From IMG/VR virus record IMGVR_UViG_3300007541_000163, positions 1 through 27,018 of that record: 27,018 bases of DNA; one strand, written 5' to 3'. This document shows, piece by piece, positions 3-26,187 of this stretch (position 1 is the first letter of the stretch; each line of letters opens with the position of its first letter). The DNA is from a virus. The notes below the pieces were generated by a model. That model had not been told where the DNA came from and searched no databases. It was given only the letters and a program-made list of their open reading frames with translations. Made by a program: the position numbers and the translations under genes.

Positions 3-965
3 AATACTGATGCCACTACTAGTGCTTATTTGGATTTCTACGTAAAGAGTGGTGTTACTGGTGGAACGGCAGTATCTTTAACCAATGTTATCAGAATAAA
101 TGAAAGTGGATTAATACCAGTAACAACTTCTACGTTTAATTTGGGTGGAACCTCGAACAAATGGAATCATATTTACGCAGATAATATTACTGCAACTAAT
201 ATTAATGCCCCAATTAGTGGAAATGCCGACACTGCAACAAAATTATTAAATGCTAGAAACTTTAGTGTTAGTGGTGATGTAACTACAGCATCTCCTGTAT
301 CTTTTGATGGTACTGCTAATGTTGATTTAGCTGTTAGTCTACCTACCATACCTGGATTAACTGCAGGTACTTATGGATCAGCAACACAAATTCCGACAAT
401 TACTGTTAATAATAAAGGAAAAGTTACTGCAGTATCTGTAAACACTTTTACTCCTGCAAACTCCCAAACTTCTGATGCATTATTAACTCAAACAAATGCT
501 ACTAATGCTAATTATTATCCAACATTTGTAAATTCCAATAATGCCGCACCAGGAACTGCAGAATCTTATTTTACTACAGATAAATTTACCATAAATCCAA
601 GTAATGGTAATTTAGTAGTTAGTGGTACTGTTACTGCAAACTCTGATGCTAGACTGAAAGATAATGTAGAAACAATCAATGATGCTTTAAATAAAGTTTT
701 ATTATTGAGGGGAGTTGAATATGATAGAAATGATATTGAAGGTAATCCTCATCAAATTGGTGTAATTGCTCAAGAAGTTGAAGAAGTACTTCCAGAATTA
801 ATTAATGGTCAAGGAGATGAGATTAAGTCTGTTGCATATGGTAACTTTGCTGGTCTTTTTATTGAGGCATTTAAAGAGCAACAGAAGACAATTCAAGAAC
901 AAAATGCTAAAATAGATCTGTTGACCAAGCAAGTCGAGGCACTTATGGAAAAATTGGGGGGTTGA
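3..965 (+). CDS. Tail fibre protein with C-terminal S74 chaperone domain (5' partial)
   Basis: The reading frame is open from the window edge, so the N-terminus is missing; the TTG at 30 is not a credible start. The visible part has the low-complexity Thr/Asn/Ser/Gly composition of phage fibre shafts, including an ADTATKL...FDGTANVDLA stretch typical of tail-fibre repeats. The last ~100 residues match the intramolecular chaperone of endosialidase (Peptidase_S74): NSDARLKDN, then an IGVIAQEVEEVLPEL block, then a C-terminal coiled coil (EQQKTIQEQNAKIDLL). In this family the domain trimerises the fibre and then cleaves itself off just before the Ser of the NSD motif. A second S74 tail ends the gene at 3252-9068 with near-identical junction DNA. 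The stop TGA lies inside the next promoter's -35 region. Function as a virion fibre is a family-based inference. Confidence 0.85.
   Translation, partial: NTDATTSAYLDFYVKSGVTGGTAVSLTNVIRINESGLIPVTTSTFNLGGTSNKWNHIYADNITATNINAPISGNADTATKLLNARNFSVSGDVTTASPVSFDGTANVDLAVSLPTIPGLTAGTYGSATQIPTITVNNKGKVTAVSVNTFTPANSQTSDALLTQTNATNANYYPTFVNSNNAAPGTAESYFTTDKFTINPSNGNLVVSGTVTANSDARLKDNVETINDALNKVLLLRGVEYDRNDIEGNPHQIGVIAQEVEEVLPELINGQGDEIKSVAYGNFAGLFIEAFKEQQKTIQEQNAKIDLLTKQVEALMEKLGG
623..648 (+). repeat. 26-nt direct repeat at S74 junction, copy 1
   Basis: These 26 bases are identical to 8771-8796. Both copies encode GTVTANSD, exactly where the variable fibre body joins the S74 chaperone domain. Downstream the two genes stay similar as protein but differ as DNA. 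A short identical block at a domain boundary is the expected footprint of module exchange by recombination, though strong conservation of the cleavage site could also preserve it. Confidence 0.75.
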
Positions 966-990
966 CCCCTTCTGAATCATCTGCTACAAT
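962..990 (+). promoter_or_regulatory. Sigma70-like promoter overlapping a fibre gene end and small hairpin
   Basis: TTGACC at 962-967 and TACAAT at 985-990 are separated by exactly 17 bases. The -35 box overlaps the stop of the fibre gene and the loop of a small GGGG-TTGA-CCCC hairpin (958-969) followed by only two T residues, so the hairpin would be a weak terminator. Predicted transcription start is near 997, which supports ATG 1019 over TTG 962 as the start of the next gene. The arrangement resembles the stronger terminator/promoter overlap at 9076-9111. Confidence 0.65.
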
Positions 991-1395: not shown

Positions 1396-1445
1396 GAAGA
1401 CTTGACAATCAGCAGATCCTATCCTATGATTGTTAAGTCATCTTC
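1396..1445 (+). repeat. Inverted repeat enclosing the tRNA promoter
   Basis: The left arm 1399-1411 (GACTTGACAATCA) pairs with 1427-1439 (TGATTGTTAAGTC) over 13 base pairs with one G-U. After a 3-base bulge, GAA 1396-1398 pairs with TTC 1443-1445. The loop is 15 bases. The -35 box lies wholly in the left arm and the -10 box overlaps the start of the right arm. With no T-run it is not a terminator. It could be an operator or an RNA hairpin at the leader of the tRNA transcript. Confidence 0.6.
1402..1430 (+). promoter_or_regulatory. Sigma70-like promoter for the tRNA cluster
   Basis: TTGACA at 1402-1407 and TATGAT at 1425-1430 have a 17-base spacer, a near-consensus vegetative promoter. The predicted start near 1437 lies about 11 bases before the first tRNA, so it most likely drives tRNA-Ile and the two tRNA-Leu genes. 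Confidence 0.75.
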
Positions 1446-3251: not shown

Positions 3252-6200
3252 ATGGGTCTTAGTCGCTTAGATAATTTTCTAAAGAATAGTAGAGGGGATA
3301 TTCTTTATGTAGATCCCTCAAGTATTGATTCAACAGATAGTATTGAAAATCAAGGTAACTCTTTGGTTAGACCTTTTAAAACAATTCAAAGAGCATTAAT
3401 TGAAGCTGCCAGATTTTCGTATCAAGTTGGACTGGATAATGATAGGTTTAGTAGAACCACTGTTATTGTTTATCCAGGTGAGCACTTAATTGATAACAGA
3501 CCTGGATGGATACCCATTCATGATAATCCTGTTAGTGGAAATAATTGGTTAACTAGAGGAGGTGCTTATTCAAATGCACTTGAGGGATTTAATCTAGATA
3601 CTAATTTTGATGTAAATAGTGAGAATAATTCATTATATAAAATGAATTCTGTGTATGGTGGAGTAATTATTCCTCGTGGTACATCTATTGTTGGATTAGA
3701 TCTTCGTAAAACAAAAATCAGACCCAAATTTGTTCCTAACCCTCAAGACGATACGGTCGATTCAACTTGTTTGTTTAGGGTGACAGGAACTTGTTATTTC
3801 AATCAATTTACATTCTTTGATGCTGATCCAAATAGTTTAGTATATAAAGATTATGGACTAAACTTATCAGTACCAAATTATTCTCACCACAAACTAACTT
3901 GTTTTGAATATGCTGATGGTGTTAATCCTGTAGCATTTGATAATGATGATTTAAATTATAATACAACAAAAACTGATCTTGATTTATATTATGAAAAAAT
4001 TGCATTAGTTTATGGTCCTTCCAGCGGGAGAGAAATTTCACCAGTATTTCCAAGTGTTGATGTTGATATTCAATCAAAAATTGATGAATATAGAATTGTT
4101 GGATCAATAGGTCAAAATATAGGGATAACCAGTATTAGATCTGGCGATGGTATTAATTCATCAAATATAATTACTGTAGATATTTTAGAACCAATTAATG
4201 GTCTTGATGTTGATACTCCTATTAGAATCGAAGGAATTCCAGCATCTGGATACAATGGATCTTTTGTTATTAGGAGTGTTGAAGATCCAACTACAATTAC
4301 ATATACAGTATCAAGTCCACCAGTAGATCCTTTACCAACAATTATTGCTGGATCTCCAACATTGAATATTAGTGTAGATACTGTAACTTCTGCTTCTCCA
4401 TATATCTTTAACTGTTCATTGAGATCAGTTTATGGTATGAATGGTCTACATGCAGATGGATCTAAATCTGATGGATTTAGATCTATGGTTATCGCACAAT
4501 TTACTGCGATCGGACTTCAAAAAGATGATAATGCTTTTGTAAAGTATAATCCTATTTCTGGTGCATATGAAGATTCTGTTAGTGTACCAAATTTACATAC
4601 AAATTCTTTATCAGTATATAAACCGTCTTATGATACTTTTCATATTAAAGCATCAAATAATGCTTTCTTGCAATTAGTATCTGTCTTTTCAATTGGTTTT
4701 GGTAATCATTATATTTCCGAGAGTGGTGGTGATTTATCAATCACAAACTCAAATTCAAACTTTGGTGCAAAAGCTTTAGTATGTAAAGGATTTAGAAAAG
4801 ATGCATTTCCTAGAGATGATGCTGGATATATCACACATATCTTACCACCACAGGCAATAAATTCCCAAGAAATTACGGTTGAATATGGTGCTATCGATGT
4901 TGAGACTACTATAGCACAACTTAATAATACTAGATTGTATCTTTATAATGAATTAAATCGAGACATACCTCCAAAATCTGTTATTGAGGGATATCGAATA
5001 GGTTCTAAATTTGATGATAGACTAAAAGTTGTAATTAATAATCAAGAAAAATCTGCATCTATTATAATGCCAGACACACAGGGTTCTGGTATATATGAGT
5101 GTTCTTCTTTTAAAATAGCAACTGTTGGAAGAACTAATATTGGTATTAATAGCATAAGTTCAAATATTCTTACTTTAACAGAACCACATTTATTTGAATC
5201 TGGTGAAACCATTCGTATTTTTAGTGATGATGGTGAACTTCCAGACGGAATTTCAAATAATAATGTATATTATGCTATCACTTCTGGTATCAATAATGAT
5301 CAAATTAAATTGGCAAGAACACTTGACGATAGTGTTAGTGAAAGTGCAGTAACTGTCAATAATAAAGGTGGAATTTTAACAATAGAATCTAGAGTTTCTG
5401 ATAAAAAGTCTGGAGATATTGGACATCCAGTTCAATATGATGAGTCTGTAGGTCAATGGTATATTACAGTAAGTTCTGTAAATAATGATATCTATAGTAC
5501 AATTACCAGTTTAGGTTTTCCTTCTTTAGGAAAGGCAACATCAAAAACTTATATATCTAGAACACCAGATAATAGATCTCTAGATAGTAAAATTTATAAA
5601 GTTAGATATGTAATACCAAAAGATAGTACTGTTATTTCTAGACCTCCAGAAGATTCATTTGTATTGCAAGAATCCAATACAACTAGTGGATTTAGTGACT
5701 CTGAAGTTGCAAAATTCATGAATATTAGTGCTGTAACGTTATCTAATACTTCTGAACTTAGAAATCCAAGATTCATTAGTAATGCAATTCATAATCCTGC
5801 CGTTGGAATTGCGACAATATTTACTGATACTGCTCACCAGTTGTCAATTGGATCAAAAGTAGAAATTAAAAATGTTATTTCATCAAATAATATAACTGGA
5901 ATTGCCAATACTGGATATAATGGCATTTATGATGTTTTAGATACACCAACAAGAAAATCTTTTAGTATTGGAATAACGACTAGTACTGGAATTTTTAGGT
6001 CAAATATCAATATAAGAAATCTTGATTTGCCTATTTTTAAGAGAAAAGAATTAGATAAAACTTTTTGGATTTATAAAACTGAAGAAATTCAAGATTATAT
6101 TCCAAATTCTAGGGACGGTGTATATCATTTAACTATAATTGATTCATCAAGTTCTCCTACAGTAAATCCATTTACAGATCTAAAGTTTTCTCAGCCATTA

Positions 6201-9068
6201 AAGAATTTATATCCACAACTTGATAGAGATAATCCAGAAAATAATCCAAATAAAACTAGAACTTTTGCTTTACCTACTCCAATTGGACTAACTGAAATTG
6301 ATAATCCTCAGAACAGTTTAACTAGAGAAGTTATTGAAAACACTATTAGTAGTTTTAATTATAATATTGGTATTCTTGATATACATTCACAAACTGGAAG
6401 TTCTCATACTATTACAACAAAACCAGATCATGGTTTGAATCGTGTTACTAAAGTATCTATTATCAATCCTGGAATTAACTATGGTGATGGGTCTGGAGGA
6501 GTTCAGGTATTATATAATGCTTCCTTAATTGGAGCTGCTGGATCTGTCGTTGGTAAACATGCAACAGCAAATGTTGAGGTAGATGTAAATGGAAGCATTA
6601 CTAATGTCAAAATAGTTGACGGTGGATCTGCATATGGGATTGGTAATACCCTTACAGTAGTTGGTGTTGGAACTACGACTGGTTGGGTTGCTGGATATGT
6701 CGTAGTTGATCAAATATACGATAATACTGGAGATGTGCTTAAATTATCGGGATTAAGAGATTCTAGGTTCGGTGAATATAATAATCTTTATAGAATTACT
6801 AATATAAATGTTGGTGATGATCATAATATAACAGTCTCTTCTGCATCTACGATTTACTCACACCCAGCATATGGTCAAAGGGAAGTTATAAGTGGAGTTA
6901 ATACTGATGGATTGATTAATATTAATACTTCAATCCTTTCTGATGTTACTTTATATTTAACTGGACAATCTATTGGAATTAATTCTACTTTTTATAATAA
7001 TATAACTGGAATTACTACGATAACAACAAATAATTCTCATGGATTATTGGTTGGTAATAAAATCGTTGTAAGTGATGTACCAGGTATAGACCAGTATAAT
7101 AAAACATATTATGTTAGGAATGTAATTAATAACAATACTATCGATGTTTTTTCTGGAGCAGGAGTTACTTCACTATTACCAGCTTCTGGTGGATACATTT
7201 ATCCTGTAGGATTTGATGATCAACAAGACATTATTGATATTGATAAAGAATATGATTCGTCTAGACTTGTTGCCAGATATGCTGGTATAACTACTACTTC
7301 AACTACTTTATTGGGTGACCCTGCAATTAACACTATTGCGGTTACTAACGCAACTCATAGAGGTTGGGAAGTTGGTGACTATATCATTGTTAATAAAGAG
7401 ATAATGCGTATTAATCAAAGTGTCATAAATGACACTTCTTTGAGCGTATTCCGTGGACTTTTTGGAACAAGAAAAGACATTCATCCAGCTGGATCTGTAA
7501 TAAGAAGGGTTAAATTTATACCAACTGAACTTAGAAGAAATTCTATTATTCGTGCATCTGGACATACATTTGAATATCTTGGATATGGTCCTGGTAACTA
7601 CTCTACCGCATTACCTTCAAGACAAGACAGGCAGTTTAAAAATATTGAAAGAATTTTATCACAATCTTCTGCAATTAATGGTGGTACTCCATTCTATAAT
7701 GGATTGGATGATAAAGGAAATGCATACACTGTAAATAAATTTACCAGTGGTTCTACTGGTACAGATTTGCTCACTAATGCTCCAATACCTACTGTTAGGG
7801 GAGAAGATATAACGAGTGATAATTCATCTGTTGGGTATGATATTTTATCTACAGAGCAATTAACTGTTAATAGAGGTATAAAAGTTGATGGTGGTAAAGA
7901 TAACAATATTATCTCAGAATTTAATGGTCCAACAATCTTTAACGAAAAAGTAACCGTTAAAGATTCTATTGAGGGAAATAGTATTCTTATTCAAGGTGAT
8001 CAAACAATTTCTAGAGAAATAAGTATAGGAATTGGCACACCAGAAATTGCTGGAAATATTGGTGATTCTAAAATAAATGCAGAACCAAAAGATGGTGGAA
8101 CATTTGGTTGGGTATACACTGATAATAATACTTGGAATGAGTTTGGACCAATAAAAACGACTGCAGATAATTATTATGTTGGTTTATGGAGTGGAACCTT
8201 TAGAGGTGATGGATCAGGATTAGCAAATGTCTCTGATGTATGGGTTTTTGATGGTGTTGGAATCTCTACTACCACAAATGTTGGTATTGAAACGACATCT
8301 GCAAAACCTGGATACTCTCTTTATGCTGCTGGTCCTGTATTATTTGAGAATAATGTTGAATTTAGATCAGAAGCTTTAGTTTGGAATATTGAGAAAGGAT
8401 GGATAGTTGAGACTGGTATCAGTACATTTAATCAGCAGGTCAATTTTAATACCTCAAATCATACAGGTGTCTCAACATTTATAAATCAAGTTATTATAAG
8501 CACTAATCCACAAATAACTGGAGGTGCTAATGAACTTGGTCAATATGTAACTTTTAGACAAACTGATCAAGCGTTAACAAATGCTTATTTGTATGGTGGA
8601 ATTAACTTTGAGGGTAATGATGTTGGTAATAGTGGTGTAAGGGGTTACATTAGAGGTGCTTCTGAAGGTGCTGCTGGTCAATTTGCATTGGTCTTTGGAA
8701 CTCAAGAATCTGGGGCATCTAATCCTCAAGAGAGACTTAGAATCAGTGGTGCGGGTAATGCTACCTTCTCTGGTACTGTTACTGCAAACTCTGATGAGAG
8801 ACTTAAGGAGAATGTCGTTGGAATTGGTAATGCTCTAAGTAAAGTTCTTGACCTCAGAGGTGTATACTTCAACCGTGTTGGTCAACCAGAACGTGAGATT
8901 GGTCTTATTGCACAAGAGGTTGAAAATGTTCTTCCTGAACTTGTATTTGAATCTCCAGATGGAGTTAAGTCTGTTGCATATCAAAACATGGTTGCTGTTC
9001 TAATTGAGGCAATCAAAGAGCAGCAAGAGCAGATTAACGAACTCAAGGCGCGATTGGACAGTCTTTGA
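3252..9068 (+). CDS. Giant virion structural / tail-fibre protein with S74 chaperone tail, 1938 aa
   Basis: The N-terminus MGLSRLDNFLKNSRGDILYV, then RPFKTIQRALIEAARFS and TVIVYPGEH, is the pattern of large cyanomyovirus structural proteins and suggests a beta-helix/pectate-lyase-like head. The body is Ser/Thr/Asn/Ile/Gly-rich with repeated domains: each has a Thr-rich strand, 'H-x-L...G', a beta strand, then 'YN-x-x-Y-x-V', near residues 290, 635, 850 and 1250. A different module near 1355 reads GDYIIVNKEIMRI...VFRGLFGT. The C-terminus from N1846-S1847-D1848 is an S74 domain (ERLKEN, IGLIAQEVENVLPEL, then a coiled coil), predicted to release about 92 residues by self-cleavage before S1847. 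The start is ATG 3252 downstream of a late promoter; no strong Shine-Dalgarno is seen. Its likely job is host recognition at the tail. Whether it is a long or short fibre or a baseplate spike is undecided. Confidence 0.85.
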   Translation: MGLSRLDNFLKNSRGDILYVDPSSIDSTDSIENQGNSLVRPFKTIQRALIEAARFSYQVGLDNDRFSRTTVIVYPGEHLIDNRPGWIPIHDNPVSGNNWLTRGGAYSNALEGFNLDTNFDVNSENNSLYKMNSVYGGVIIPRGTSIVGLDLRKTKIRPKFVPNPQDDTVDSTCLFRVTGTCYFNQFTFFDADPNSLVYKDYGLNLSVPNYSHHKLTCFEYADGVNPVAFDNDDLNYNTTKTDLDLYYEKIALVYGPSSGREISPVFPSVDVDIQSKIDEYRIVGSIGQNIGITSIRSGDGINSSNIITVDILEPINGLDVDTPIRIEGIPASGYNGSFVIRSVEDPTTITYTVSSPPVDPLPTIIAGSPTLNISVDTVTSASPYIFNCSLRSVYGMNGLHADGSKSDGFRSMVIAQFTAIGLQKDDNAFVKYNPISGAYEDSVSVPNLHTNSLSVYKPSYDTFHIKASNNAFLQLVSVFSIGFGNHYISESGGDLSITNSNSNFGAKALVCKGFRKDAFPRDDAGYITHILPPQAINSQEITVEYGAIDVETTIAQLNNTRLYLYNELNRDIPPKSVIEGYRIGSKFDDRLKVVINNQEKSASIIMPDTQGSGIYECSSFKIATVGRTNIGINSISSNILTLTEPHLFESGETIRIFSDDGELPDGISNNNVYYAITSGINNDQIKLARTLDDSVSESAVTVNNKGGILTIESRVSDKKSGDIGHPVQYDESVGQWYITVSSVNNDIYSTITSLGFPSLGKATSKTYISRTPDNRSLDSKIYKVRYVIPKDSTVISRPPEDSFVLQESNTTSGFSDSEVAKFMNISAVTLSNTSELRNPRFISNAIHNPAVGIATIFTDTAHQLSIGSKVEIKNVISSNNITGIANTGYNGIYDVLDTPTRKSFSIGITTSTGIFRSNINIRNLDLPIFKRKELDKTFWIYKTEEIQDYIPNSRDGVYHLTIIDSSSSPTVNPFTDLKFSQPLKNLYPQLDRDNPENNPNKTRTFALPTPIGLTEIDNPQNSLTREVIENTISSFNYNIGILDIHSQTGSSHTITTKPDHGLNRVTKVSIINPGINYGDGSGGVQVLYNASLIGAAGSVVGKHATANVEVDVNGSITNVKIVDGGSAYGIGNTLTVVGVGTTTGWVAGYVVVDQIYDNTGDVLKLSGLRDSRFGEYNNLYRITNINVGDDHNITVSSASTIYSHPAYGQREVISGVNTDGLININTSILSDVTLYLTGQSIGINSTFYNNITGITTITTNNSHGLLVGNKIVVSDVPGIDQYNKTYYVRNVINNNTIDVFSGAGVTSLLPASGGYIYPVGFDDQQDIIDIDKEYDSSRLVARYAGITTTSTTLLGDPAINTIAVTNATHRGWEVGDYIIVNKEIMRINQSVINDTSLSVFRGLFGTRKDIHPAGSVIRRVKFIPTELRRNSIIRASGHTFEYLGYGPGNYSTALPSRQDRQFKNIERILSQSSAINGGTPFYNGLDDKGNAYTVNKFTSGSTGTDLLTNAPIPTVRGEDITSDNSSVGYDILSTEQLTVNRGIKVDGGKDNNIISEFNGPTIFNEKVTVKDSIEGNSILIQGDQTISREISIGIGTPEIAGNIGDSKINAEPKDGGTFGWVYTDNNTWNEFGPIKTTADNYYVGLWSGTFRGDGSGLANVSDVWVFDGVGISTTTNVGIETTSAKPGYSLYAAGPVLFENNVEFRSEALVWNIEKGWIVETGISTFNQQVNFNTSNHTGVSTFINQVIISTNPQITGGANELGQYVTFRQTDQALTNAYLYGGINFEGNDVGNSGVRGYIRGASEGAAGQFALVFGTQESGASNPQERLRISGAGNATFSGTVTANSDERLKENVVGIGNALSKVLDLRGVYFNRVGQPEREIGLIAQEVENVLPELVFESPDGVKSVAYQNMVAVLIEAIKEQQEQINELKARLDSL
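8771..8796 (+). repeat. 26-nt direct repeat at S74 junction, copy 2
   Basis: Identical to 623-648; it encodes GTVTANSD at residues ~1841-1848 of the giant fibre protein, immediately at the predicted self-cleavage point. Confidence 0.75.
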
Positions 9069-9075
9069 ACTGGTC

Positions 9076-9099
9076 GGGGGGTTGACACCCCCCTTTTTT
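9076..9099 (+). terminator. Rho-independent terminator with a -35 box as its loop
   Basis: GGGGGG (9076-9081), loop TTGACA, CCCCCC (9088-9093) and TTTTTT (9094-9099). The stem is six G-C pairs directly followed by six T residues, eight bases after the fibre stop codon. The six-base loop is a consensus -35 hexamer. Confidence 0.9.
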
Positions 9100-9111
9100 G
9101 TGCTGTATAGT
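9082..9111 (+). promoter_or_regulatory. Sigma70-like promoter nested in the terminator
   Basis: TTGACA 9082-9087 and TATAGT 9106-9111, spacer 18. Predicted start near 9118, giving a short leader before GTG 9137. It would separate the early-type helicase/methyltransferase transcript from late fibre transcription in almost no space. Confidence 0.8.
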
Positions 9112-9136
9112 GGGCAGGTATTAAACCAAGTTTTTT

Positions 9137-12100
9137 GTGAGCACTTCTCTTCTTACCAAGCAAACCGAATTCACTTCTAATAATATTAGTGAAAGTGAAA
9201 TCAATACTTGGTTTTACATTTTGTATAATCATAATCTTCATTTGTTCTTTTTTGGTCAAGCAAAAGACTCTAGGAAGAATAAACGGCATAATGATACTGA
9301 TTATACAAAACTTATTGGAAGTTGGAATCTTCTAGGTCATAAACATACTACTTATTGGATTGGCATTAAACAGGTAGGACATCACCTTGATAAAAAGGTT
9401 CATCCAGAAATTGAAGCATTTCCAAATTGTGAAAGTAATTCTGGATCTGGTTCTAATGAAGTTTTTATGTTGAAAGGATTTAGTTTAGAGCGTACATTGC
9501 AAGTATGCCTCAATATTGTAAACAAACTTTTTGGTGAAGCAACGTTTGAAGATGCAAAAAAACTTGTACTCAAACATTATCAAAAAGATTTTGGTATTAA
9601 AATTCGTTCTGCTTGGGAAAAACATAAACAATTTCTTCTGAATGCTAAATGTCGTTCTGGAAAGAATATTATGGTTCTCAGTCATATTGTGGATGAAAAC
9701 GATAAATTGTCTATTGCATGTTCTCGTTCTGGATCTCCAGGAAAAGGTTGGGAAAATGATAAAGAATATTTTCCATCGGTTAAATTTATTAATGTTAAAG
9801 ATAAGGGATGGGAACAAGAACTTGCTTATTGGATGCTTCAAGATGGTGTACAAATTGTTGTTTGGGGAACGGTTCAAAGTCTGACCAATCGTGCTGAAGA
9901 ACTTTGTAAATATCATATCGATTTTATTGCAATTGATGAGGCACATATTGGTAGTCAGGCACAACAATTTACAAGTCTTTATAATAAGTTTAATGAATCT
10001 CAAAATGAAGTAATTAAACTTATTTACATTACTGGAACTGCAGATAAATTGTTCCCTTCTTTTAATAAAGAAAATAGTTTTGTATATTCTTATTGGCAAG
10101 AACAACTAGATGTTCGTAAAGGATTATTTGGTGATGAATATCGTCCTAAAATGAGGGTTCATTTTGCAAAATATGAATGTGAGGAATATAAAAAGATTTT
10201 TGGTGATGATCCAGATGCTATGGGTAACATTTTTACACTGAAAGAAAAGAAGGGTAAGGATTCTGAGTTTCTTTATGATTCTCTTGCCCGTAGTTTTGCT
10301 ATGAAGTTTTACGGTCCAGAACAGTCTAAACTTCGTCTTCCTAATCGTTTGCTTCAAGGCAATTACCATATGATGTCAATGAAGGGAGTTGGTGAGTGTC
10401 ATGCATTTAAAAAAATTGTAGAATGTTATATTCCAACTCTTGTAGTTACTGGTGAAACGGATGAAGATCAAAAGACAATCAATAATTTTTGTCTTCGCAA
10501 TTCTAAAGCACTTATTATCACTTGTAGTGCCAATGTTCTTGGAATGACTTGTGAGTATATTGATACTGTTATCAATTGTCATGGTGGAGAGTCTAAAGAA
10601 TTTTGGCAACAGTTTTCATTTCGTGGTGGATCTGGAAATCATGATTGGGATGTAATTGATTTTGATGCAGAACGAGGACTTCGTGTAATATGTGAATCTT
10701 ATCAGAAAGCAACTGATACAGAACCAGAACTTTTAAACTATGATCAAAGCGATTTTATAGTTATTGATGAATGGTTGAATGGATTTAAACAACTAAATCA
10801 AGATAGGATTGAGCAAATTTTGCACAATAGTTTTGAATCTGTAAAACCCAGTTTTTCTAATATTGTAAAGGGACTTGATCTTGATGATATTGACTTTTTT
10901 GATTTTGAATTGGATTCAAATCTAACAGATATTATTTCTGAAGAAATTTTAAATGAAAATGGTGCAAATAATAAAAATTGTATTAAAAAACTGAATAACA
11001 AAAAAGAAAAATCCAATGATCCCGAAAGTCAAAAAGTAAAGACTGTTAAGGCACTTCTAGAGTCTATTCGTCTTGTTATGACTTATATTATTTCTGAAGA
11101 TATTAAGGTTTATACAATTAACTCTATTATTAAAACCGAAGTTTATAAAAATATTACTGGAGATCATAATAAAATTCTTGAAAAGGTTATTGATAAAAAT
11201 CCCAATAGTAAAAATGCTATTAATGAAAAAATTAGTGCATTTAGTTGCGTTATTAAAAAAAAGTTGAAGGAATCTAAGGCAAAAACCTTAGATGAGTACA
11301 GTGTATCCTTACAAACTCAAAAGAGTATTCCTATGGATCTTTTTGATTCTATGCTTGATAACTGCAATGATTTTTCTAAAGTCTATATGTTTGGTGATCC
11401 CAGCGGATCTCACACTGCCCGTCTTCTGGAGAGGAACATTAATCCAAACAATGTTACTGTGTGGGAGAGTTGCGATAGTCACCGTAATCGTGTAAAATAT
11501 GTAAATGAAGATGTAAATATTGTTGATTCTCATCCAAATATGAAGTTTACTGCTATTCTTGCCAATGCCCCATATAAAGATTCTACTAAGAAGGCAAAAA
11601 ATAATAAACTTTGGCCCCTTTTTGTTGAGCAACATCTTGATTTGATTGCTCCTGGTGGAGATCTGTGTGAAGTTACTCCCACGTCTGTTTTGGGTATTAC
11701 AGGTAAAGGTAAGAAGTTTATGAAGTTGTTCTCTACAAAGTATAATCTAAAAATGATTGATTATACTGCAGATGATTACTTTACAGAAAGTGTTGCTATT
11801 TGTCGTTGGCATCTTACAAACGAACCTTATCAGGGTAAAACGCTTGTTATTACTCACGATGAATCTTTTATTTGGGATTTGAGGAACGGTCTTCCTTTAA
11901 TTGGAGATGCTGCAATTAAGCAGAGCATTCTTAATAAAATTGCTAACTCCAGTCATCCTCGTATTCCTTTGAAAATGGGTCAAGATATTGCTAAAGAAGA
12001 TCATGTACCTGATGGTAAGTATGAAATCTACCACTCATCCAAAAAAATTAAACGTACTAACATTGTTCCTACAACTGGGGATGTACTAAAGTTTGTTGCA

Positions 12101-12391
12101 CCATTCTCTTCCACTTATAAAAAAGGAGGTGTTTTTATTACCAATGGATATGTGGGTATGCTTAATTGTTGGTGTCCTATTGCTTCGGAAGAAGAGGGGA
12201 ATCGCCTCCTCAAAATTTTTGATAAAAAGATCATTCAGTTTTTTATTGATTCTTATAAAAGGAATAGTGGATTTACTGCTGCTATTAAAAATGGTGAAGT
12301 ACCTGACATCACGGACTATGATAATTTGCCTGATCAATTTGGTTTTACCGAAGAAGAAGTTGAGTATTTAAAGAAGAATAATGTCATCTAA
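9137..12391 (+). CDS. SF2 helicase-adenine methyltransferase fusion, R-M-like, 1084 aa
   Basis: Begins at GTG 9137, the first in-frame start after the promoter. Residues ~25-55 (FYILYNHNLHLFFFGQAKD, then Arg and His) weakly resemble a GIY-YIG nuclease. Residues ~170-600 are a superfamily 2 helicase: CRSGKN (K176, with Asn where Ser/Thr normally follows), DEAH at 267-270, a TGTA motif III and WQQFSFRGG as a degenerate motif VI. A charged linker follows. Residues ~735-900 are an N6-adenine methyltransferase-like domain: FGDPSGSHT (D754) as a variant motif I, VTVWES as motif II, and NAPY at 810-813 in place of NPPY, followed by WPLFVEQHLDLIAPGG and a P-S/T-x-L loop. The order recalls single-chain type ISP or type III restriction enzymes. 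Possible roles are restriction of competing phage, self-modification or counter-defence. Helicase and methyltransferase folds are fairly sure; a nuclease is not. The end overlaps the next gene by 11 bases. Confidence 0.75.
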   Translation: MSTSLLTKQTEFTSNNISESEINTWFYILYNHNLHLFFFGQAKDSRKNKRHNDTDYTKLIGSWNLLGHKHTTYWIGIKQVGHHLDKKVHPEIEAFPNCESNSGSGSNEVFMLKGFSLERTLQVCLNIVNKLFGEATFEDAKKLVLKHYQKDFGIKIRSAWEKHKQFLLNAKCRSGKNIMVLSHIVDENDKLSIACSRSGSPGKGWENDKEYFPSVKFINVKDKGWEQELAYWMLQDGVQIVVWGTVQSLTNRAEELCKYHIDFIAIDEAHIGSQAQQFTSLYNKFNESQNEVIKLIYITGTADKLFPSFNKENSFVYSYWQEQLDVRKGLFGDEYRPKMRVHFAKYECEEYKKIFGDDPDAMGNIFTLKEKKGKDSEFLYDSLARSFAMKFYGPEQSKLRLPNRLLQGNYHMMSMKGVGECHAFKKIVECYIPTLVVTGETDEDQKTINNFCLRNSKALIITCSANVLGMTCEYIDTVINCHGGESKEFWQQFSFRGGSGNHDWDVIDFDAERGLRVICESYQKATDTEPELLNYDQSDFIVIDEWLNGFKQLNQDRIEQILHNSFESVKPSFSNIVKGLDLDDIDFFDFELDSNLTDIISEEILNENGANNKNCIKKLNNKKEKSNDPESQKVKTVKALLESIRLVMTYIISEDIKVYTINSIIKTEVYKNITGDHNKILEKVIDKNPNSKNAINEKISAFSCVIKKKLKESKAKTLDEYSVSLQTQKSIPMDLFDSMLDNCNDFSKVYMFGDPSGSHTARLLERNINPNNVTVWESCDSHRNRVKYVNEDVNIVDSHPNMKFTAILANAPYKDSTKKAKNNKLWPLFVEQHLDLIAPGGDLCEVTPTSVLGITGKGKKFMKLFSTKYNLKMIDYTADDYFTESVAICRWHLTNEPYQGKTLVITHDESFIWDLRNGLPLIGDAAIKQSILNKIANSSHPRIPLKMGQDIAKEDHVPDGKYEIYHSSKKIKRTNIVPTTGDVLKFVAPFSSTYKKGGVFITNGYVGMLNCWCPIASEEEGNRLLKIFDKKIIQFFIDSYKRNSGFTAAIKNGEVPDITDYDNLPDQFGFTEEEVEYLKKNNVI

Positions 12392-12788
12392 AAACAAGCA
12401 TAATAAAAAACATGGATCTATATTAGATAGATCTGATGAACGCATTAAACAAACGCAGGAGGTATTTACTCCTCCTGCATTAATTGATAAGATGATTGGT
12501 GATCTTCCAGAAGAAGTTCTTAAAGATCCAAACTCAAAATTTATTGATAACTGTGCTGGTGATGGTAACTTTTTGGTGCAATTATTTAAAACACTTAAAC
12601 AGTATCATACCGAACAACATATTCTCAACAATATGTTGTATGCTGTAGAATTAATGGAAGATAATCATGAAGAATTATGTAAGAGATTGGGTGTTCCAAT
12701 AGATCATCCCCACTATGTCTGTACTAATGCCCTAACTTATGATTATATATTCATGAAGAAAATCACATTAGATCAATTTATGGATTGA
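12381..12788 (+). CDS. N-terminal half of an N6-adenine DNA methyltransferase, 135 aa
   Basis: TQEVFTPPALIDKMIGDLP (residues ~25-43) matches the usual entry to Eco57I/HsdM-like methyltransferases. FIDNCAGDGNFL (54-65) is a clear SAM-binding motif I and YAVELMEDN an acidic motif II. The protein then stops at residue 135, just where NPPY (motif IV) would be expected, so no catalytic motif is present. The upstream fused protein has NAPY but a poor motif I, and the genes overlap by 11 bases. A split or heterodimeric enzyme, a regulatory subunit, or a remnant of a longer gene are all possible. No frameshift continuation with NPPY is visible in the 57 bases before the next gene. Confidence 0.7.
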   Translation: MSSKNKHNKKHGSILDRSDERIKQTQEVFTPPALIDKMIGDLPEEVLKDPNSKFIDNCAGDGNFLVQLFKTLKQYHTEQHILNNMLYAVELMEDNHEELCKRLGVPIDHPHYVCTNALTYDYIFMKKITLDQFMD

Positions 12789-12791
12789 CCC

Positions 12792-12815
12792 GATCCCCGC
12801 GCTTGGGGGTCTTTT
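12792..12815 (+). terminator. Rho-independent terminator
   Basis: GATCCCC 12792-12798 pairs with GGGGGTC 12805-12811 (one G-U), loop GCGCTT, followed by TTTT. It begins three bases after the stop of the methyltransferase-half gene. Confidence 0.75.
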
Positions 12816-12819
12816 GCTG

Positions 12820-12825
12820 TATACT
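12820..12825 (+). promoter_or_regulatory. Possible -10 box (TATACT) for the second helicase
   Basis: TATACT follows the terminator T-run in the context TTTTGCTGTATACT, closely matching TTTTGTGCTGTATAGT after the 9076 terminator. TTGACC at 12785 is too far (29 bases) to be its -35 box, so only the -10 is supported. The repeated context suggests the same terminator-plus-promoter module. Confidence 0.4.
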
Positions 12826-25944: not shown

Positions 25945-26118
25945 ATGCCTTACCCCCTTGGTATTGACAATCCTATTGTCGTCCGTGGAGTAGTTGGAAG
26001 CAGTCGCTGGGCACTGTACTGGAAGGAAGACTGGATCAAGATTGGCACCTTCTCTAATGAACATCTTGCATATGGTGCTCGTCGTGCCATTCTGCGTGGT
26101 TTGGGGTATGACGCCTGA
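25945..26118 (+). CDS. Small G+C-richer hypothetical protein, 57 aa
   Basis: Start ATG 25945, not the upstream frame that overlaps the previous gene. MPYPLGIDNPIVVRGVVGSS then RWALYWKEDWIKIGTFSNEH ends ARRAILRGLGYDA. It is Trp- and Gly-rich with no signal or membrane segment. Codon use is visibly G+C-richer than most neighbours (CTGCGTGGT, CGTCGTGCC), pointing to different ancestry or early expression. A terminator follows directly. Confidence 0.65.
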   Translation: MPYPLGIDNPIVVRGVVGSSRWALYWKEDWIKIGTFSNEHLAYGARRAILRGLGYDA

Positions 26119-26131
26119 ATAACTGGCACAC

Positions 26132-26160
26132 AAGGGTCTCCAGTCACCTGTAGACCCTTT
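26132..26160 (+). terminator. Stem-loop terminator, weak T-run
   Basis: AAGGGTCT 26132-26139 pairs with AGACCCTT 26152-26159. Inside, CAG 26141-26143 and CTG 26148-26150 extend the stem beyond one mismatch. A T-rich TTTATTATT follows. It starts 13 bases after the 25945 gene's stop. Confidence 0.65.
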
Positions 26161-26187
26161 ATTATTAGATCAGTTCAGACACCCATC

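What the first reader, a model, noticed from the sequence alone, without database searches (positions are those of the whole stretch)
9076..9111. Terminator loop is the -35 box of the next promoter
A GGGGGG-TTGACA-CCCCCC-TTTTTT hairpin ends the giant fibre transcript, and its six-base loop is a consensus -35 element with TATAGT 18 bases on. One 36-base element ends late transcription and starts an early-type unit; DNA cruciform formation or passing polymerases could link the two activities. Weaker forms occur at 958-990 and near 12785-12825, where TTTTGTGCTGTATAGT and TTTTGCTGTATACT follow the T-runs.
Basis: seen in the sequence. Interest (0 to 1): 0.7.

Follow-up and report, generated by a model that had tools for sequence, protein, structure and literature searches.

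The report
Fused terminator and promoter in cyanophages
A 36-base stretch in a marine cyanobacterial virus appears to be both the stop signal for one gene and the start signal for the next, with part of the start signal sitting in the loop of the stop hairpin; the same fused design recurs with many different stems in related viruses and was absent from the few sites of this type that I could check in cyanobacterial genomes.

Summary
Shuffled windows give about 0.001 such composites. It is not a one-off. An IMG/VR scan that fixed only the -35, T-tract and -10 found the flanking arms complementary at 43 of 113 sites (4.6 expected), with 38 different stems. A permuted -35 gave 1 of 21, bacterial genomes 3 of 119, cyanobacterial genomes 0 of 19. 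Carriers are almost all Kyanoviridae-like. In ten Kyanoviridae genomes 30% of strong terminators have a -10 just after the U-tract; a consensus-like -35 in the hairpin is a subset. Orthologous fibre ends keep hairpin plus -10, but the loop is TTGACA only in some. The closest known kind is the PeSL promoter-terminator cassette of T4-like phages; in RB49/phi1 I find the two signals in tandem, not fused. I read this as a new, fused variant: it ends late fibre transcription and starts an early-type unit by host sigma-70-type polymerase. The cruciform idea is unsupported; polymerase hand-over is untested. No transcript data were available.

The parts
3252..9068 (+). giant tail-fibre gene (1938 aa, Peptidase_S74 C-terminus), late-type, upstream of the element
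   Evidence: PHROG 529 tail fiber E=0; Pfam Peptidase_S74
9054..9077 (.). decayed copy of a 24-bp dyad (TGTGMCAGTT-N4-AACTGTCACA), 28 nt upstream of the -10
   Evidence: PWM score 6.6 on the minus strand, a top-ten window position; intact copies (11-18) at the same place in L522, L523, L528, L529, L532
9076..9093 (+). intrinsic terminator hairpin GGGGGG-TTGACA-CCCCCC
9082..9087 (+). -35 hexamer TTGACA, at the hairpin tip
9094..9099 (+). U-tract of the terminator, inside the promoter spacer
9106..9111 (+). -10 hexamer TATAGT, spacer 18 (start of transcription predicted near 9118)
   Evidence: -10 kept in orthologues
9137..12391 (+). downstream ORF, Eco57I-like DNA methyltransferase/helicase-like, early-type; GTG start context shared with L524-L526
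   Evidence: PHROG 22930, PHROG 3689, Pfam Eco57I
12792..12825 (+). second composite: hairpin GATCCCCGCGCTTGGGGGTC, T4, then -10 TATACT (12820-12825); no -35 in loop
26107..26165 (+). third composite: intact dyad TATGACGCCTGAATAACTGGCACA (26107-26130), hairpin 26132-26159, -10-like TATTAT 26160-26165
958..990 (+). promoter-like TTGACC-17-TACAAT over GGGG/CCCC; no T-run, not a terminator

Best explanation
The element is a fused intrinsic terminator and sigma-70-type promoter of a Kyanoviridae-like cyanophage. RNA polymerase leaving the late tail-fibre gene makes the G6/C6 hairpin and U6 and stops around 9094-9099, before it reaches the -10. The same DNA, read as a duplex by host polymerase with a primary sigma factor, gives a -35 (TTGACA) and a -10 (TATAGT) that start a separate transcript near 9118 for the methyltransferase/helicase unit. 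The spacer between -35 and -10 is the 3' arm plus the U-tract, so both signals and the insulation between them fit in 36 bp. Shown by sequence: the architecture, its covariation over many stems, its bias to Kyanoviridae, its place between genes, and its retention at orthologous fibre ends. Inferred: that it terminates and initiates in the cell, and that late-to-early insulation plus compact, exchangeable gene cassettes are the reason for it.
For: Exact composite, chance about 0.001 per window. Scan with unconstrained arms: 43/113 paired vs 4.6 +- 2.1 with arms re-dealt between sites, 38 distinct 5' arms; permuted hexamer 1/21; bacterial genomes 3/119; cyanobacterial genomes 0/19 sites from 386 genomes. 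Ten Kyanoviridae genomes: TTGACA (>=5/6) inside terminators at promoter spacing 24/568 vs mean 3.8 over 179 permuted hexamers, first of 180; 0/354 in T4, RB49, phi1, 44RR. -10 at 7-15 nt after the stem in 79/264 strong terminators vs 10-24 in other equal windows. Carriers resemble Kyanoviridae: 40/45 and 57/59. Placement: 58/91 have both an upstream stop within 60 nt and a downstream start within 150 nt (random 48/600); 1/91 inside an ORF (random 212/600). Orthologous fibre ends keep hairpin + T6 + -10 in nearly all loci long enough to tell. Upstream gene structural, downstream genes methyltransferase/helicase.
Against: No transcript data. In most orthologues of this very site the loop is CACTG, TACTA or CAATG, so the -35 is not required there. 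Spacer 18 with no TGn is weaker than the family norm (17 with TGC), and relatives with TTGACA have spacers of 18-19. Fold z-score for the single hairpin is only -1.55, because G6/C6 composition alone folds well. Straboviridae also show some excess of -10-like hexamers at 7-15 nt (31/227 vs 13-20).
Confidence: 0.78

Rival explanations
1. Terminator followed by an extended -10 or dyad-activated promoter; TTGACA in the loop is incidental. The -10, helped by an upstream dyad-binding factor, does the work.
For: Most orthologues lack TTGACA but keep the -10, and several carry an intact dyad 28 nt upstream of it; only 21/79 Kyanoviridae composites have a -35 of >=4/6; dyad (PWM>=10) in 20/79 composites vs 2/3000 random positions.
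Against: TTGACA beats 179 permuted hexamers in loops and pairs with arms far above chance in the unconstrained scan. At the window's own site the dyad is decayed where TTGACA is present.
Confidence: 0.2
2. Plain terminator only; the -35/-10 match is chance and the downstream gene is transcribed otherwise.
For: Sigma-70 consensus matches alone are no more frequent in the window than in shuffles.
Against: The joint arrangement is about 1000-fold above chance in the window and strongly enriched in the phage group.
Confidence: 0.06
3. The G-run/C-run dyad is a protein operator over a -35 box (repression), not an RNA terminator.
For: Some IMG/VR sites have GGGGTTGACACCCC and a -10 but no T-run.
Against: 38 distinct stem sequences with pairing kept, followed by T-runs: pairing, not sequence, is conserved.
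Confidence: 0.04
4. Terminate-and-restart: polymerase released at the U-tract stays on the DNA and re-initiates at the overlapping promoter, or the hairpin forms a DNA cruciform that toggles promoter use.
For: RNAP recycling and re-initiation after intrinsic termination at original and nearby promoters when sigma is kept is shown in vitro (PMC6978380); here the distance is about 0-12 bp.
Against: Late T4-type transcription uses gp55, not the primary sigma (own knowledge), so a late polymerase would need a sigma exchange; arms of 6-7 bp are poor cruciforms; no data here.
Confidence: 0.12

Closest known systems
PeSLs (promoter-early stem-loops) of T4-like phages: Arbiol et al. 2010, Comeau et al. 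[quoted passage not shown]
   Same: Early sigma-70-type promoter plus intrinsic terminator in one short intergenic cassette, many copies per genome in gene-shuffling regions; ACG-2014f carries about 8 copies of such a cassette with shared flanks
   Different: In RB49/phi1 the -35 lies about 12-32 nt downstream of the terminator stem (tandem) and never inside it; in Kyanoviridae the -35 is in the hairpin and the spacer is the 3' arm + U-tract. Neither PeSL paper was held, so they may already note the fused form.
Intrinsic (Rho-independent) terminators
   Same: GC stem, short loop, U-tract
   Different: Loop is a promoter hexamer instead of UUCG/GAAA-type loops; a generic sample of viral G4-N6-C4-T6 hairpins had CTTCGG most often and no TTGACA in 133
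Post-termination RNAP recycling/re-initiation (Kang et al. 2020, PMC6978380)
   Same: A nearby promoter could be re-used by polymerase after RNA release
   Different: In vitro bacterial system, not a sequence element; coupling here is untested

Membership tests
Intrinsic terminator | GC-rich hairpin followed by a U-tract at a gene end | tested here: met
   7-bp stem, -14.6 kcal/mol, T6, 7 nt after the fibre stop codon
Intrinsic terminator | RNA 3' end mapped at the U-tract | not testable with these tools
   no Term-seq data held
Sigma-70-type promoter | TTGACA and TATAAT-like hexamers spaced 16-18 | tested here: met
   11 of 12 matches, spacer 18
Sigma-70-type promoter | Mapped transcription start | not testable with these tools
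   none available
PeSL (T4-like promoter-terminator cassette) | Early promoter plus stem-loop terminator in one intergenic cassette | tested here: met
PeSL (T4-like promoter-terminator cassette) | Tandem layout as in RB49/phi1: terminator, then promoter starting 12-32 nt downstream | tested here: not met
   the -35 lies inside the hairpin; 18 such in Kyanoviridae, 0 in RB49/phi1
PeSL (T4-like promoter-terminator cassette) | Multiple similar copies per genome that mediate module exchange | tested here: inconclusive
   Copies shown in ACG-2014f; different downstream genes follow the same fibre-end cassette in relatives; the window itself is a 27-kb fragment with three divergent composites

The most novel reading that the evidence does not exclude
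Cyanomyoviruses use a lineage-specific regulatory grammar in which a terminator hairpin is built into the fixed interval between an upstream dyad site and an extended -10, with the loop optionally serving as the -35, so that polymerase stopping at one gene module is handed over directly to the promoter of the next.
Probability: 0.15. Interest if true: 0.8.

Novelty: new variant of a known kind. Interest (0 to 1): 0.6.

Why it matters
Cyanophages of this group are among the commonest viruses in the sea, and how they partition early and late transcription on one strand is poorly mapped. A fused stop/start element that can be recognised by pattern gives a genome-wide prediction of transcript boundaries in isolates and metagenomes. 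It also offers a compact insulated promoter for synthetic biology, and a clean test of whether termination and re-initiation can be coupled at one site.

Tried and rejected
Search by the downstream protein found no relatives; searching with the fibre C-terminus did. The exact 12-mer GGGTTGACACCC hit only 1 of 17 named phages, because stems vary; this led to the scan with unconstrained arms. Cruciform: rejected for short arms. Operator reading: rejected because stems vary with pairing kept. A first genome search with a locus as centre failed and was redone with a genome handle. PeSL papers and the Syn9 transcriptome paper were not held, so their contents could not be checked. One BLAST query with a variant element gave only chance hits.

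Full report
CHECK OF THE OBSERVATION. The 36-base string is present as described: G6 9076-9081, TTGACA 9082-9087, C6 9088-9093, T6 9094-9099, TATAGT 9106-9111. RNA folding closes one further U-A pair inside the loop (7 bp, loop UGAC, -14.6 kcal/mol). A strict composite (TTGACA with complementary arms, T4+, TANNNT at 16-18) occurs once in the window and 0.001 times per first-order shuffle. The promoter scan by itself is uninformative: 96 promoter-like sites vs 102 in shuffles. The joint arrangement is what stands out. Of the two weaker forms claimed, 958-990 has no T-run, and 12792-12825 is a terminator followed by TATACT without a -35 in the loop.

SURROUNDINGS. Upstream lies a 1938-aa tail-fibre gene with a Peptidase_S74 C-terminus, a structural and hence late-type gene. 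Downstream come an Eco57I-like methyltransferase/helicase-like ORF, an N6-methylase fragment and a DEAD-box helicase. The contig is a virus record of 27,018 bases, and its nearest named relatives are Synechococcus and Prochlorococcus phages. A late-to-early boundary is therefore plausible, but timing is inferred from gene content.

IT RECURS. GGGGTTGACACCCC is frequent in IMG/VR; about half of the first 121 sites are followed by a T-run, usually with a -10 at promoter spacing. That search fixed the stem, so I repeated it with free arms: TTGACA-N7-T5-N5-TATAAT. Of 113 distinct viral sites, 43 have a stem of at least 5 Watson-Crick pairs (at least 3 GC) around the hexamer. Re-dealing arms between sites gives 4.6 +- 2.1 (maximum 11 in 200). 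The 43 sites use 38 different 5' arms. Controls: the permuted hexamer TACAGT gives only 25 loci in the whole collection, with 1 of 21 distinct sites paired. The same pattern in bacterial genomes gives 3 of 119. In 386 genomes drawn from the phylum of a Melainabacteria-type genome, i.e. cyanobacteria in the broad sense, there were only 19 sites and none was paired. Pairing kept over changing sequence is evidence for an RNA-level hairpin and against a protein operator.

WHO CARRIES IT. Proteins encoded near the elements resemble Kyanoviridae in 40 of 45 free-arm loci and 57 of 59 G4 loci. In ten complete Kyanoviridae genomes, TTGACA (5 of 6 or better) lies inside a terminator hairpin at promoter spacing in 24 of 568 terminators; permuted hexamers average 3.8, and TTGACA ranks first of 180. 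Four non-cyanobacterial T4-like phages give 0 of 354 and two cyanopodoviruses 0 of 36. Independently of the -35, 79 of 264 strong terminators have a -10 hexamer 7-15 nt after the stem, vs 24, 17 and 10 in later windows of equal size; 37 of the 79 are extended -10s (TGn). Straboviridae show a smaller excess there (31 of 227 vs 13-20) and a separate peak near 40 nt. So the general design in this phage family is 'terminator with a -10 right behind it', and the -35-in-loop is one version of it.

PLACEMENT. Of 91 paired sites, 58 have an upstream ORF stop within 60 nt and a downstream ORF start within 150 nt, vs 48 of 600 random positions; 1 of 91 lies inside a long ORF, vs 212 of 600. In Synechococcus phage ACG-2014f, seven copies between 27 and 52 kb all sit in gaps between co-directional annotated genes. 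One directly follows a tail protein gene and one directly precedes a helicase. Their flanks resemble each other from the upstream stop to the downstream start, as expected of exchangeable cassettes.

THE SAME SITE IN RELATIVES. Searching with the fibre C-terminus gave twenty close loci (L522-L541). Where the contig continues, nearly all keep hairpin, T-run and a -10 right behind the stop codon (L534/L535 do not). The loop is TTGACA in L524-L527 and L538 and in the window, but CACTG, TACTA, CAATG or CATTG in others. TTGACA loops occur with two different downstream genes: GTG-start sequences like the window's in L524-L526, another gene in L527 and L538. The relatives with other loops mostly carry an intact 24-bp dyad 28 nt before the -10 (L522, L523, L528, L529, L532; scores 11-18), which is decayed in the window and in the TTGACA relatives (at most 6.6). 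My reading is that two ways of making the same promoter work alternate at this site; the number of independent events is small. Across all Kyanoviridae composites dyad and -35 are not exclusive (9 have both).

MECHANISM. Shown: architecture, covariation, phage-group bias, placement, retention. Inferred: the hairpin/U-tract stops the fibre transcript just before the promoter's -10, while host polymerase binds the same duplex and starts near 9118. Because the spacer is the 3' arm plus U-tract, read-through into the next unit is limited without extra length. Cruciform extrusion is not needed and is unlikely with 6-7 bp arms. [quoted passage not shown]), but late polymerase would carry a different sigma (own knowledge), so I rate it low.

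COMPARISON WITH THE KNOWN. PeSLs are cited as composite promoter-terminator motifs that mediate shuffling in T4-like phages (references seen in PMC4503421; the papers themselves were not held). In RB49 and phi1, the phages in which I remember PeSLs being defined, I find terminators followed by early promoters whose -35 starts mostly 12-32 nt after the stem, with none inside it. The Kyanoviridae form works like a PeSL but is fused; I file it as a new variant, with the caveat that the PeSL papers may already describe it. PMC4503421 notes that S-PM2 has few PeSLs by the usual description, which fits a search that looked for the tandem form. Sullivan et al. 2010 (PMC3037559) predicted sigma-70 promoters and terminators separately; the passages found there describe no overlap.

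Noticed in passing
window 26107-26130; also L766-L845 sites and ACG-2014f, P-SSM2 genomes: A 24-bp dyad, consensus close to TGTG(A/C)CAGTT-N4-AACTG(T/G)CACA, lies at a nearly fixed distance (25-26 nt before TGCTATAAT at 93 of 110 sites from a scan allowing 20-28) upstream of cyanophage promoters, with or without a terminator in between; it looks like a binding site for an unknown regulator.
   Followed up: partly
Synechococcus phage S-BM1 (L765) about 2501-2569 and 14 IMG/VR loci such as L448, L493, L520: A larger subtype, GGGAGGTAACTGGCAAAATCCAG-TTGACA-CCTCCC-T6-TATAAT, with an inner hairpin before the -35; similar sequence in 341 phage records; in S-BM1 it lies about 1.1 kb upstream of psbA.
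   Followed up: partly
window 12381-12788: Short N6-methylase-like ORF directly after a larger methyltransferase-like ORF (9137-12391) and before a DEAD-box helicase: possibly a split restriction-modification-like module in a phage.
   Followed up: no
P-SSM2 (NC_006883.2) 48607 and 235154: Variant composites in which the -35 is in the 5' arm of the hairpin (ACCCTTGACATattATGTCAGGGGT-tttataat), so that the loop and 3' arm form the spacer.
   Followed up: no
window 1402-1430: Strong promoter-like TTGACA-17-TATGAT in an intergenic stretch, without a terminator.
   Followed up: no
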